Source: an archaeon (lineage in GTDB: Archaea > Aenigmatarchaeota > Aenigmatarchaeia > QMZP01 > JAFGSV01). Taken from it: a DNA stretch of 64,000 nucleotides. The notes below the pieces were generated by a model. It was not told where the DNA came from. It ran no database searches and saw nothing but the letters and a program-made list of their open reading frames with translations. Below are positions 617 to 33,433 of this stretch, in pieces (the stretch's first letter is position 1; each line of letters opens with the position of its first letter). Position numbers and translations under genes: made by a program. The stretch spans positions 236,257 to 300,256 of the forward strand of contig JANQNF010000024.1 of NCBI GenBank assembly GCA_028279705.1, in the 5' to 3' direction.

Positions 617-1270
617 ATGAAAGAGACGATCCCCGGCGTATTCAGGGACGGAAAGAAGATATTCACAATGAGCATGGTGAAGGGCTATAACGCGTACACG
701 AAGAGCATCGTGACCAAGGGAAAGGCCGAATACAGGCAGTGGGACCCAGACAAGAGCAAGCCTGCAGCAGCCATCATTAAAGGCCTGAAGACGTTTCCAA
801 TCACGTCCGGTTCAAAGGTCCTCTATCTCGGCGCCGCATCCGGGGCCACTTGCAGCTTCTTTTCAGACATCGTAGGCGAAAACGGTGTCATATACGCAGT
901 AGAGATATCGGAAAGGTCCGCAAGGGACCTTAACGTTACCTCGGAGAAGCGCGGAAACATCGTTCCAATACTTGCCGACGCCAGAAAGCCCGAGGATTAT
1001 GACTGGGTGGAACCCGTTGACCTGGTATTCGAGGACGTTGCAAGCGACGAACAGTCTGCAATAATGATACGGAACTCAGACAAGTTCCTGAAGCCGGGCG
1101 GCCATGCCATGATTGCGATAAAATCACGAAGCATAGACGTTGTCAGGGACCCCAAGCAGGTTTACAAAGAGCAAATTGCCATTCTTGGGAAACATCTAGA
1201 GATAGTTGAAAAAGTCGAGCTGGATCCGTACGAAAAGGACCACATGTTCGTCGTTCTTAGAAAAAAGTGA
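617..1270 (+). CDS. flpA: fibrillarin-like rRNA/tRNA 2'-O-methyltransferase
   Basis: YLGAASGATCSFFSDIVGENGVIYAVEIS and whole-length fibrillarin pattern; adjacent to Nop5. Confidence 0.95.
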   Translation: MKETIPGVFRDGKKIFTMSMVKGYNAYTKSIVTKGKAEYRQWDPDKSKPAAAIIKGLKTFPITSGSKVLYLGAASGATCSFFSDIVGENGVIYAVEISERSARDLNVTSEKRGNIVPILADARKPEDYDWVEPVDLVFEDVASDEQSAIMIRNSDKFLKPGGHAMIAIKSRSIDVVRDPKQVYKEQIAILGKHLEIVEKVELDPYEKDHMFVVLRKK

Positions 1271-30721: not shown

Positions 30722-32770
30722 GTGGTTAAAATGATGCTTGGCAAGATTCACGGAAGGGTCACTACTACTGGTTTCAGCTTCGAGGCAGAGGCCAAGGTCA
30801 AGAAGCTTGATTACGTCGCCATCAAGACCCCGGAAGGGGAATGGGTGACGGCCTACATAGACAAAATCACGCGCTACGCAGACAGGACCATAGCCAACTG
30901 CCACGTCATAGGCTACAGGAACCCGAGGGGATTTCTCGTCGTGCCAAACGTTCCTTTTGCGCCAGAAACGCCCGTATTCTCGGCATCAGAAGAGCAGATA
31001 AGGAACACGCTAGGAATACCGGAAGACGGCCTCTACATAGGCATAATGGACGGCTACGACATCAAGGTCAACCTGCCGGTAAAGCAGCTTGTGACAAAGC
31101 ACCTCTCCATACTCGCAAAGACCGGTGCGGGCAAGAGCTACATGGCGGGGGTTCTGATGGAGGAATTCGCTGAAAAGAAGATACCGGTCGTCATAATGGA
31201 CCCCCACGGTGAATATACGTCACTTGGGGTCGCAAACGACGAGGAGAAGGAGCTGAAGTTTGCCGAGAAGTTCGGCATAGAGCCCAAGTCGTACATTGAC
31301 CAGATAAAGCGCTTCACAGTCGAGGACGGCAATCTCAAACTCAACACAAAGCTCAGCGCAGAGGAACTCTTCCAGTGCCTCCCGATAAAGATATCCGGGA
31401 CCCAGAAGGGCCTGATCTATTCGGCCATGAGGAACCTGGGCGGAAAGGATTATTCTCTCACAGACATGATAAACGAGATAAGCACGCTTCCGTCGCAGTC
31501 CAAGTGGAACCTGATATCAGCCCTTGAGTTCCTGGAAAAGACGAGACTGTTCTCTAAGAACCCGACGAGTCCTACCGAGCTGGTAAAACCCGGCCAGATA
31601 TCCATAATCGACGTCAAGTATGCAAGGCCCGAGATCCAGCAGACAATAGTGTTCAAGCTCGCACAGGAGCTTTTCGCTGCCAGAAAAAAGAACGAGGTTC
31701 CGGGATTCTTCCTAGTGCTTGAGGAAGCGCACACGTTTTGTCCCGAGAGGGGCTTTGGCGAGGTTTCTTCTTCCAAGATAATAAGGACAATAGCATCCGA
31801 AGGTCGTAAATTCGGACTAAGCATGTGCGTCATAACCCAGAGGCCGGCAAGAGTCGACAAGAACGTACTGTCCCAGTGCAACACCCAGGTGATAATGAAG
31901 GTGACGAACCCAAACGACCTCAAGGCCATCACCGATTCTGCAGAAGGCATAACTTCTGGGATGCGCGAAGAGATAAGGGACCTTCCGGTCGGTAGCGCTC
32001 TTGTAGTCGGGGCGACAGAACAGCCCATATTGTCAGAGATAAGGGTAAGGAGGAGCAAGCACGGCGGCGAGGCGGTGCTGCCTACAGTGAAATCAGGTCC
32101 AATGAAAGTGAGAAACACCGCACTACCTCCAAGATACAGCAAGGAGAAAATCACAGAAGAATTCAAGGATGCCGAATCGGTCTTCCAGGTAAATTATCCC
32201 GTATGGCTTCTCAAGGGAACGGTCAACGGAAACAACGCAGAAGTCTACATTGACGGCCTGATGGGCGAGGTCATTTACGAGAGTCATGGAAGCCTCAAGA
32301 GGACAAACGGCCTGCAGAGCCTTGCTACACTTTCTTCAACCGAGAGAAAGATCATATCTTCCCTGCTTTCGATGAAGTACGGCACGCTTGAGAAGGTGGC
32401 GACGTCGACGAGGCTTATGTCAAACGACTGCCACAGGCTTCTCAAGAATCTCATGGGAAAAGGACTCGTCACAAGCGACGGCTACAACTTCAGGCCCGTT
32501 CGCGTCAAGATACCAGGCGACCTACTCAAGCTCGGCTTCAAGGAGAGTCCGGAAGAATTGGACCTTGAAGGAAAGATAGTCAATTTCAGCGTTCCAAGGG
32601 ACACTGCCCAAAAGATTGCGGGACTCTTCGGTGTCCAGGTAGAATCCGCGCAGATGGTCTATTATCCTTACTGGCTGCTCGTCTACAGCAACAAGAAGGC
32701 GCTTGTGGACGGCCTCACGAAGAAAGTGGACGTGGAAGCTACAAAAGAAGTCATCGGGATGATACGCTAG
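30722..32770 (+). CDS. HerA-like (DUF87) ATPase/helicase
   Basis: ILAKTGAGKSYMAGVLMEE Walker A, VVIMDPHGEY, VLEEAHTFCPERG Walker B; GTG start or ATG at 30731. Confidence 0.87.
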   Translation: MVKMMLGKIHGRVTTTGFSFEAEAKVKKLDYVAIKTPEGEWVTAYIDKITRYADRTIANCHVIGYRNPRGFLVVPNVPFAPETPVFSASEEQIRNTLGIPEDGLYIGIMDGYDIKVNLPVKQLVTKHLSILAKTGAGKSYMAGVLMEEFAEKKIPVVIMDPHGEYTSLGVANDEEKELKFAEKFGIEPKSYIDQIKRFTVEDGNLKLNTKLSAEELFQCLPIKISGTQKGLIYSAMRNLGGKDYSLTDMINEISTLPSQSKWNLISALEFLEKTRLFSKNPTSPTELVKPGQISIIDVKYARPEIQQTIVFKLAQELFAARKKNEVPGFFLVLEEAHTFCPERGFGEVSSSKIIRTIASEGRKFGLSMCVITQRPARVDKNVLSQCNTQVIMKVTNPNDLKAITDSAEGITSGMREEIRDLPVGSALVVGATEQPILSEIRVRRSKHGGEAVLPTVKSGPMKVRNTALPPRYSKEKITEEFKDAESVFQVNYPVWLLKGTVNGNNAEVYIDGLMGEVIYESHGSLKRTNGLQSLATLSSTERKIISSLLSMKYGTLEKVATSTRLMSNDCHRLLKNLMGKGLVTSDGYNFRPVRVKIPGDLLKLGFKESPEELDLEGKIVNFSVPRDTAQKIAGLFGVQVESAQMVYYPYWLLVYSNKKALVDGLTKKVDVEATKEVIGMIR

Positions 32771-32788
32771 TTCTACCGGAATAGCGGA

Positions 32789-33214
32789 ATGGTGACTATA
32801 TTGTCAGACTTCATAACAGATTGTCTGCGAGGAATTTTCGACACCGATGGATCATTCACATTTAAGAAAAATCACAAAAAAGTGAACTATTACCCGGTTG
32901 TCAAGCTTTACATGAAGAGCAAACCTCTGATAAAGCAGGTTGCAGAACTACTGCTTATTTATGGAATAGAGAGCAACGTCCAATATGATGTAAAGGCTTT
33001 CGACAAAAGGGGCTTCATTTCTATTACACACCAACTTCATATAAACGGTAAGCGCATGATTGGAAAATTCATGGAGGTAATAGGAACGTCGAATCCTAAG
33101 CATGAAACAAAATATCTTTTATGGCGAAAGAAAGGCTTTGTGAAACCAGGTTCTAAATTACACGAAAGAATGAGCGAATTAGGTCTGAATTACACAAAAT
33201 TTATTAAAGATTGA
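32789..33214 (+). CDS. free-standing single-motif LAGLIDADG-type homing endonuclease-like protein
   Basis: CLRGIFDTDGSFTFKKN and LINQVAELL/GIESNV-type architecture; 141 aa. Confidence 0.78.
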   Translation: MVTILSDFITDCLRGIFDTDGSFTFKKNHKKVNYYPVVKLYMKSKPLIKQVAELLLIYGIESNVQYDVKAFDKRGFISITHQLHINGKRMIGKFMEVIGTSNPKHETKYLLWRKKGFVKPGSKLHERMSELGLNYTKFIKD

Positions 33215-33236: not shown

Positions 33237-33388
33237 GCCTCGGTGGCTCAGCGGTTAGAGCGCCACAAGTCCCTAATAAGGATTAGGTGAAGCTCATAAG
33301 CGTGTCTTTATGAGCGCTGAGAAAACAGCAGTTTTCGATGATTTGCTGAGATACGTGGAGGTCACGAGTTCAAATCTCGTCCGAGGCA
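33237..33388 (+). tRNA. tRNA-Met(CAT, elongator type) with two introns: 33267-33291 and 33299-33352
   Basis: Mature GCCTCGGTGGCTCAGCGGTTAGAGCGCCAC|GCTCATA|ACGTGGAGGTCACGAGTTCAAATCTCGTCCGAGGCA restores anticodon stem CCACG/CGTGG and loop CTCATAA; BHB cores CGCC:GGTG (AC^A / AA^G) and CTCA:TGAG (TA^A / AT^A). Confidence 0.85.
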
Positions 33389-33395
33389 TTTCCTC

Positions 33396-33433
33396 CGGGT
33401 TGGGAATTCGTTTCCCGCCCGAGGCACTTTTTC
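33396..33433 (+). terminator. terminator-like hairpin with TTCG loop followed by T tract
   Basis: CGGGTTGGGAA-TTCG-TTTCCCGCCCG (one mismatch, G-T pairs) then CACTTTTTC. Confidence 0.45.

What the first reader, a model, noticed from the sequence alone, without database searches (positions are those of the whole stretch)
33237..33388. tRNA-Met(CAT) split by two introns with a 7-nt micro-exon
The body of a tRNA is obvious (GCCTCGGTGGCTCAGCGGTTAGAGCG ... AGGTCACGAGTTCAAATCTCGTCCGAGGCA), but no single intron gives a legal anticodon arm. Removing 25 nt (33267-33291) and 54 nt (33299-33352) leaves exon 2 = GCTCATA and restores stem CCACG/CGTGG with loop CTCATAA. Both junctions fit BHB geometry: CGCC:GGTG with bulges AC^A and AA^G, plus GAG:CTC outer helix before refolding; then CTCA:TGAG with bulges TA^A and AT^A. 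The outer CCACG/CGTGG helix for intron 2 exists only after intron 1 is removed, which implies an ordered two-step splicing pathway. Multiple tRNA introns at non-canonical positions are established mainly in Thermoproteota and some other archaea, so this is worth documenting.
Basis: partly seen in the sequence, partly recalled or inferred. Interest (0 to 1): 0.75.

Follow-up and report, generated by a model that had tools for sequence, protein, structure and literature searches.

The report
Twice-interrupted archaeal methionine tRNA gene
A DPANN archaeon carries an elongator methionine tRNA gene cut by two introns (a known kind of gene), but the second intron looks like a built-in RNA guide for modifying the tRNA's own anticodon, and a selfish endonuclease gene sits beside it, part of a widespread link between such genes and tRNA genes that I found in no paper I searched.

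Summary
Window 33237-33388 is an elongator tRNA-Met(CAT) gene with a 25-nt intron at 30/31, the 7-nt exon GCTCATA and a 54-nt intron at 37/38. Four relatives give the same junctions, with a compensatory A29-U41 to G29-C41 change. The organism is a Candidatus Aenigmatarchaeota MAG whose EndA is closest to the three-unit epsilon enzyme of ARMAN-2. Multi-intron archaeal tRNAs are long known, so the gene alone is ordinary; intron order is plausible but unproven. Two further findings matter more. (1) In 11 of 11 eMet genes, the 37/38 intron carries a segment complementary to the anticodon loop. In 10 of 11, NUGA follows with C34 opposite exactly the fifth base upstream. This looks like an intron-encoded Cm34 methylation guide; a published archaeal survey calls that guide "always exonic" for tRNA-Met. 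(2) A probably truncated LAGLIDADG gene lies 22 nt upstream. Seven of this genome's eight examined stand-alone LAGLIDADG genes abut tRNA genes, as do 14 of 17 assessable homologues chosen by protein similarity alone, which suggests homing endonucleases that parasitise tRNA genes.

The parts
33237..33388 (+). elongator tRNA-Met(CAT) gene with two introns
   Evidence: RF00005 49.4 bits; splice enumeration; separate initiator gene on C80
33237..33266 (+). exon 1 (positions 1-30, ends CCAC)
33267..33291 (+). intron 1, 25 nt, position 30/31; H helix CGCC(33261-33264):GGTG(33286-33289)
   Evidence: homologous introns of 25, 16, 15 and 13 nt in G003, G004, G005, G022; a 12-nt one read by eye in G039
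33292..33298 (+). exon 2, 7-nt micro-exon GCTCATA (positions 31-37)
   Evidence: identical in all five homologues
33299..33352 (+). intron 2, 54 nt, position 37/38; H helix CTCA(33293-33296):TGAG(33347-33350)
   Evidence: 80-86% identical in G003, G004, G005, G022
33353..33388 (+). exon 3 (positions 38-73)
33308..33315 (+). TTATGAGC, complementary to GCTCATAA (33292-33299); G33312 faces C34 (33295): putative methylation guide
   Evidence: complementarity in 11 of 11 eMet introns
33317..33320 (+). CTGA, D'-box-like, placed so C34 faces the fifth base upstream
   Evidence: NTGA at the same spacing in 10 of 11 homologues; 0.3-1.6% in shuffled introns
33321..33342 (+). hairpin GAAAAC/GTTTTC followed by GATGAT, C'-box-like
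   Evidence: sequence; equivalents in the homologues, GTGATGA in G013
32789..33214 (+). LAGLIDADG_3 gene, 141 aa, probably an N-terminally truncated homing endonuclease
   Evidence: PF14528 E=4.1e-13; aligns with the C-terminal half of a 261-aa homologue, 44% identity; absent at this locus in G003, G004, G005
32774..32791 (+). TACCGGAATAGCGGAATG, element resembling sequence upstream of several other LAGLIDADG genes
   Evidence: not tested further
30722..32770 (+). HerA-like ATPase gene, conserved upstream neighbour of the tRNA in G003, G004, G005
647..1264 (+). fibrillarin gene, the methyltransferase a C/D guide would need
   Evidence: G000:C35:236903-237520, E=1.2e-75; Nop5 adjacent at C35:235794-236432

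Best explanation
This is the elongator tRNA-Met gene of a Candidatus Aenigmatarchaeota archaeon, interrupted by two EndA-type introns. Most likely the epsilon-type EndA first cuts intron 1 at 30/31, in a fold where the D-arm 3' strand pairs with the micro-exon and intron; the ends are then ligated (by RtcB from general knowledge, not searched here). The anticodon stem CCACG/CGTGG then completes, and the standard 37/38 BHB forms and is cut. Shown: junctions, conservation, covariation, and presence of EndA, fibrillarin and Nop5 genes. Inferred: cleavage order, ligation, and a role for intron 2 as guide for 2'-O-methylation of C34 before its removal.
For: Rfam hit. Unique best splice solution in five homologues whose introns differ in length and sequence. 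Compensatory A29-U41/G29-C41 change. The order intron 1 then 2 gives a complete outer helix for both cuts in all five, the reverse only 1-2 of 3 pairs. EndA matches ARMAN-2 4fz2 (E=1.4e-92) and keeps the Tyr-Lys that align with ARMAN-2 Y160/K161, the loop residues tied to broad specificity. Guide arrangement in eMet introns; fibrillarin and Nop5 in the genome.
Against: No RNA data. The inner helix of BHB1 is weak or absent in the short introns, so it needs a relaxed-motif enzyme. ViennaRNA MFE folds of the precursors recover neither BHB nor the cloverleaf cleanly. Only D'/C'-like boxes are found, not a full C/D pair. The order of cuts is a geometric argument.
Confidence: 0.9

Rival explanations
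1. A single-intron tRNA with a different, better anticodon arm; the micro-exon is an accident of sequence.
For: Infernal reports the whole 88-nt gap as one local end.
Against: Enumeration finds no passing single-intron solution here, and the same two-intron solution is best in five homologues, far ahead of the best single.
Confidence: 0.03
2. The gene is a decayed pseudogene and another tRNA-Met does the work.
For: The LAGLIDADG neighbour is probably truncated, so the locus has been a target of selfish DNA.
Against: All stems are intact and evolve with compensatory change; the only other CAT gene recognised in this genome is the initiator. About half of the assembly was not read base by base.
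Confidence: 0.03
3. The anticodon-complementary segment of intron 2 is only a structural anticodon-intron helix for splicing or folding; the NUGA at +5 and the AUGA bind no methylation machinery, or bind only L7Ae.
For: No full box C/D pair is present, and intron complementarity to the exon is common in pre-tRNAs (general knowledge).
Against: NUGA at exactly the N+5 spacing in 10 of 11 introns that are otherwise mostly unalignable, versus 0.3-1.6% in dinucleotide shuffles; C34 of eMet is a known guided Cm site in archaea; fibrillarin and Nop5 present.
Confidence: 0.4
4. The LAGLIDADG-tRNA adjacency reflects tRNA genes as safe insertion harbours, with no link to tRNA introns.
For: His in this genome and Thr genes in G006 and G021 carry an abutting LAGLIDADG gene but no intron seen; G003, G004 and G005 carry both Met introns without the gene.
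Against: 6 of 7 adjacent tRNAs in this genome have introns away from 37/38 versus 6 of 30 others (p=0.002; small sample, positions partly read by eye); some LAGLIDADG genes appear to lie inside a tRNA gene (L174, L175, L189).
Confidence: 0.5

Closest known systems
Multiple-intron archaeal pre-tRNAs (Thermoproteales, ARMAN, Nanoarchaeum, Methanopyrus, Asgard; PMC4033280, PMC11291895; Tocchini-Valentini 2009 as cited in PMC6379350)
   Same: Two BHB introns at 30/31 and 37/38 with a very short exon between them; probable sequential removal
   Different: Here in Aenigmatarchaeota, for which the library held no report of tRNA introns; very short 30/31 introns (12-25 nt) without a conserved inner helix
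ARMAN-2 epsilon-type EndA (4fz2, 9w2k; PMC12397907)
   Same: Three-unit architecture, whole-length match, loop Tyr-Lys conserved
   Different: A second, alpha-like EndA (C3:64598-65311) also occurs, with no Lys at the position of the conserved R-K-K of M. jannaschii EndA
Archaeal tRNA-Trp intron, box C/D guide for Cm34 and Um39 (sR50; described in PMC7994747 and PMC2584109)
   Same: Intron-borne antisense to the anticodon loop, D'-like box at N+5, C'-like box after a hairpin
   Different: In tRNA-Met, where PMC2584109 says the guide is always exonic (a separate sRNA); only one guide and no clear C/D pair
Archaeal rRNA-intron and group I intron LAGLIDADG endonucleases (PMC6125680, PMC4496867)
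   Same: Same Pfam family; rRNA-gene examples also seen here
   Different: Most stand-alone homologues here abut, overlap or interrupt tRNA genes instead

Membership tests
Multiple-intron archaeal tRNA | legal cloverleaf after removal of two or more introns | tested here: met
Multiple-intron archaeal tRNA | BHB or relaxed BHB at each junction | tested here: met
   4-bp H helices at both junctions in five homologues
Multiple-intron archaeal tRNA | spliced product observed | not testable with these tools
   no RNA data
epsilon-type EndA | three-unit chain aligned over its length with ARMAN-2 and with the specificity loop | tested here: met
   4fz2, E=1.4e-92 over residues 16-396; Tyr-Lys conserved by alignment
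Box C/D guide RNA | antisense with target opposite the fifth base upstream of box D or D' | tested here: met
   10 of 11 eMet introns
Box C/D guide RNA | box C' after the D' box | tested here: inconclusive
   AUGA core in all or nearly all; full RUGAUGA only in G013 (read by eye)
Box C/D guide RNA | complete second box C / box D pair | tested here: not met
   no conserved C box before the guide or D box near the 3' end, read by eye
LAGLIDADG homing endonuclease | LAGLIDADG domain | tested here: met
   PF14528 49.8 bits
LAGLIDADG homing endonuclease | two motifs or functional dimer, DNA cleavage, homing | not testable with these tools
   141 aa with one motif aligned to the C-terminal half of homologues; structure model too poor to use

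The most novel reading that the evidence does not exclude
In Aenigmatarchaeota the 37/38 intron of elongator tRNA-Met is itself a minimal box C/D-type guide that methylates C34 before splicing, and tRNA genes are the home of a family of LAGLIDADG endonucleases that spread between tRNA loci and may move or maintain their non-canonical introns.
Probability: 0.45. Interest if true: 0.78.

Novelty: new variant of a known kind. Interest (0 to 1): 0.6.

Why it matters
The two-intron tRNA adds an uncultured DPANN phylum to a known class. An intronic guide for Cm34 of tRNA-Met would break a published rule and give a reason why this intron persists. LAGLIDADG genes fixed on tRNA genes would offer a testable answer to how archaeal tRNA introns are gained and moved; the only specific mechanisms I met in the papers read were integrase-type mobile elements and unexplained intron transposition.

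Tried and rejected
Group I intron reading for the roughly 700-nt endonuclease-bearing insertions in G024 and G016 (L189, L175): too little non-coding sequence for a ribozyme core; their exact splice sites stayed unresolved because long introns give chance BHB solutions. MFE folding as a test of splicing order was uninformative. The single-sequence AlphaFold model of the LAGLIDADG protein had pLDDT 46, so no fold search was made. My first automated tRNA scan missed tRNAs with D- or T-loop introns, so several adjacencies rest on reading flanks by eye. A strict automatic proxy gives 18 of 34 versus 20 of 1194 controls; its controls come from this genome only. The search for a separate Cm34 sRNA found none convincing in the 1.03 Mb read.

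Full report
Observation. RF00005 matches 33237-33388 at 49.4 bits while ARAGORN misses the gene. No single-intron solution passes for this sequence.

Relatives. The locus is in a Candidatus Aenigmatarchaeota MAG, judged by named relatives of the neighbouring HerA-like protein. G003, G004, G005 (same genus or family) and G022 (another family) carry both introns. The same junctions are best in each. Intron 1 is 25, 16, 15 and 13 nt in these; G039 shows a 12-nt version by eye. A29-U41 becomes G29-C41 in three of them. G013, G020, G021 and G026 have the 37/38 intron but no 30/31 intron. So the 37/38 intron looks older and the 30/31 intron patchy. The intron-2 sequence itself is detectable in the order only in family f1 and G022.

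Splicing. The genome encodes an EndA aligned along its length with ARMAN-2 epsilon EndA (4fz2, E=1.4e-92), with the loop Tyr-Lys conserved. That enzyme class cuts relaxed motifs at unusual positions. In every homologue the order intron 1 then 2 gives complete outer helices; the reverse does not. This supports, but does not prove, ordered splicing. Contrary to the finding, four outer pairs of intron 2 could form with intron 1 bulged out.

Intron 2 as a guide. TTATGAGC (33308-33315) is complementary to GCTCATAA (33292-33299), so G33312 faces C34 (33295). CTGA at 33317-33320 puts C34 opposite the fifth base upstream, the box D/D' rule (stated in PMC7994747). All 11 eMet genes I found were examined, none left out: all have the complementarity, and 10 have NTGA at that spacing (G039 has TAGA). 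Dinucleotide shuffles give complementarity plus TGA at that spacing in 0.3-1.6%. Several of these introns are otherwise unalignable. The outermost pair changes G-C to A-T in G039 and G013, but is lost in G021, G022 and G026. A hairpin or short spacer and an AUGA-containing C'-like box follow. PMC2584109 states that the Cm34 guide is always intronic for tRNA-Trp and always exonic for tRNA-Met. Fibrillarin lies in this window and Nop5 next to it. No separate sRNA candidate was convincing in the 1.03 Mb read. Against: no complete C/D pair, and no RNA data.

LAGLIDADG neighbours. 32789-33214 encodes a LAGLIDADG_3 protein, inserted between herA and the tRNA; G003, G004 and G005 have herA but no such gene there. 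It matches the C-terminal half of its closest homologue, 261 aa, so it is probably truncated. Of eight stand-alone LAGLIDADG_3 genes examined in this genome, seven abut tRNAs (Met, Thr-CGT, Asp, Asn, His, initiator Met, Val-CAC) and one lies in the LSU rRNA gene. Some of these adjacencies, including the initiator-Met one, were read from flanks by eye. Eighteen homologues from other families were taken by protein similarity only: 14 lie at tRNA genes, two in LSU rRNA, one elsewhere, one at a contig end (partly by eye). The best of them (L216, 44% identity) also sits at a tRNA-Met(CAT) gene. By a strict T-arm proxy, 18 of 34 LAGLIDADG ORF ends have a T-arm within 300 nt, versus 20 of 1194 control ORF ends (p=1e-20). 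Several ORFs end inside the tRNA gene.

Link to introns. In this genome 6 of 7 LAGLIDADG-adjacent tRNAs have introns away from 37/38 versus 6 of 30 others (p=0.002; small, partly by eye). In G024 and G016 a LAGLIDADG gene lies within the span of a tRNA gene (L174, L175, L189). Whether these enzymes move introns or merely use tRNA genes as safe targets is open.

Literature. Multi-intron tRNAs and ordered processing are established. Searches for LAGLIDADG with archaeal tRNA introns found nothing linking them. The library holds only open-licence papers, so absence there is weak evidence.

Noticed in passing
G000:C74:144597-148045: Array of about 35 tightly packed, mostly intronless bacterial-style tRNA genes on a 176-kb contig of the same bin; looks like a large phage or other contaminant rather than the archaeon.
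   Followed up: partly
L189 (G024:C34) 1190-2045; L175 (G016:C32) 1170-1995: tRNA gene with C1-G72 split by about 700 nt containing a LAGLIDADG ORF; a conserved 8-bp helix near the 3' end shows compensatory change, but splice sites and anticodon (GTA or GTT) are unresolved.
   Followed up: partly
L174 (G024:C35, reverse strand) about 1205-1935: Initiator tRNA-Met apparently interrupted in the D-arm by a long insertion with a LAGLIDADG ORF, with the T-arm region also unusual.
   Followed up: partly
G000:C3:64598-65311: Second EndA-like protein (alpha type) whose sequence lacks Lys where M. jannaschii EndA has R-K-K; possibly inactive or structural paralogue.
   Followed up: partly
G000:C35:162039-162192: 37/38 intron of a tRNA-Glu-like gene (loop CTTTCGA) also has an anticodon-complementary segment with TTGA at the N+5 spacing; may be a second intronic guide.
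   Followed up: no
G000:C4:47501-47584; also L072, L185: tRNA-Leu genes whose loop CTAAGGA reads as anticodon AAG; A34 is unusual for archaea.
   Followed up: no
L033, L034, L066, L246, L179; G000:C35:46292 region; G000:C3:64626: Introns in the T-loop (relatives and Val-CAC here) and D-loop (Asp, Phe here), several next to LAGLIDADG genes.
   Followed up: partly
window 32774-32791 and upstream of LAGLIDADG genes in L057, L060, L064, L068, L167, L187: Shared CCGGAATAGCGGAATG-like element just before the endonuclease start; could be promoter or element end.
   Followed up: partly
window 33392-33430: Hairpin-forming stretch right after the tRNA, repeating its last CCGAGGCA and ending in TTTTT; terminator or remnant of a tRNA 3' end.
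   Followed up: no
L066 (G001:C19): LAGLIDADG gene inserted between tRNA-Ile and a Glu-like tRNA gene that are directly adjacent in this genome (C70:42087-42285).
   Followed up: partly
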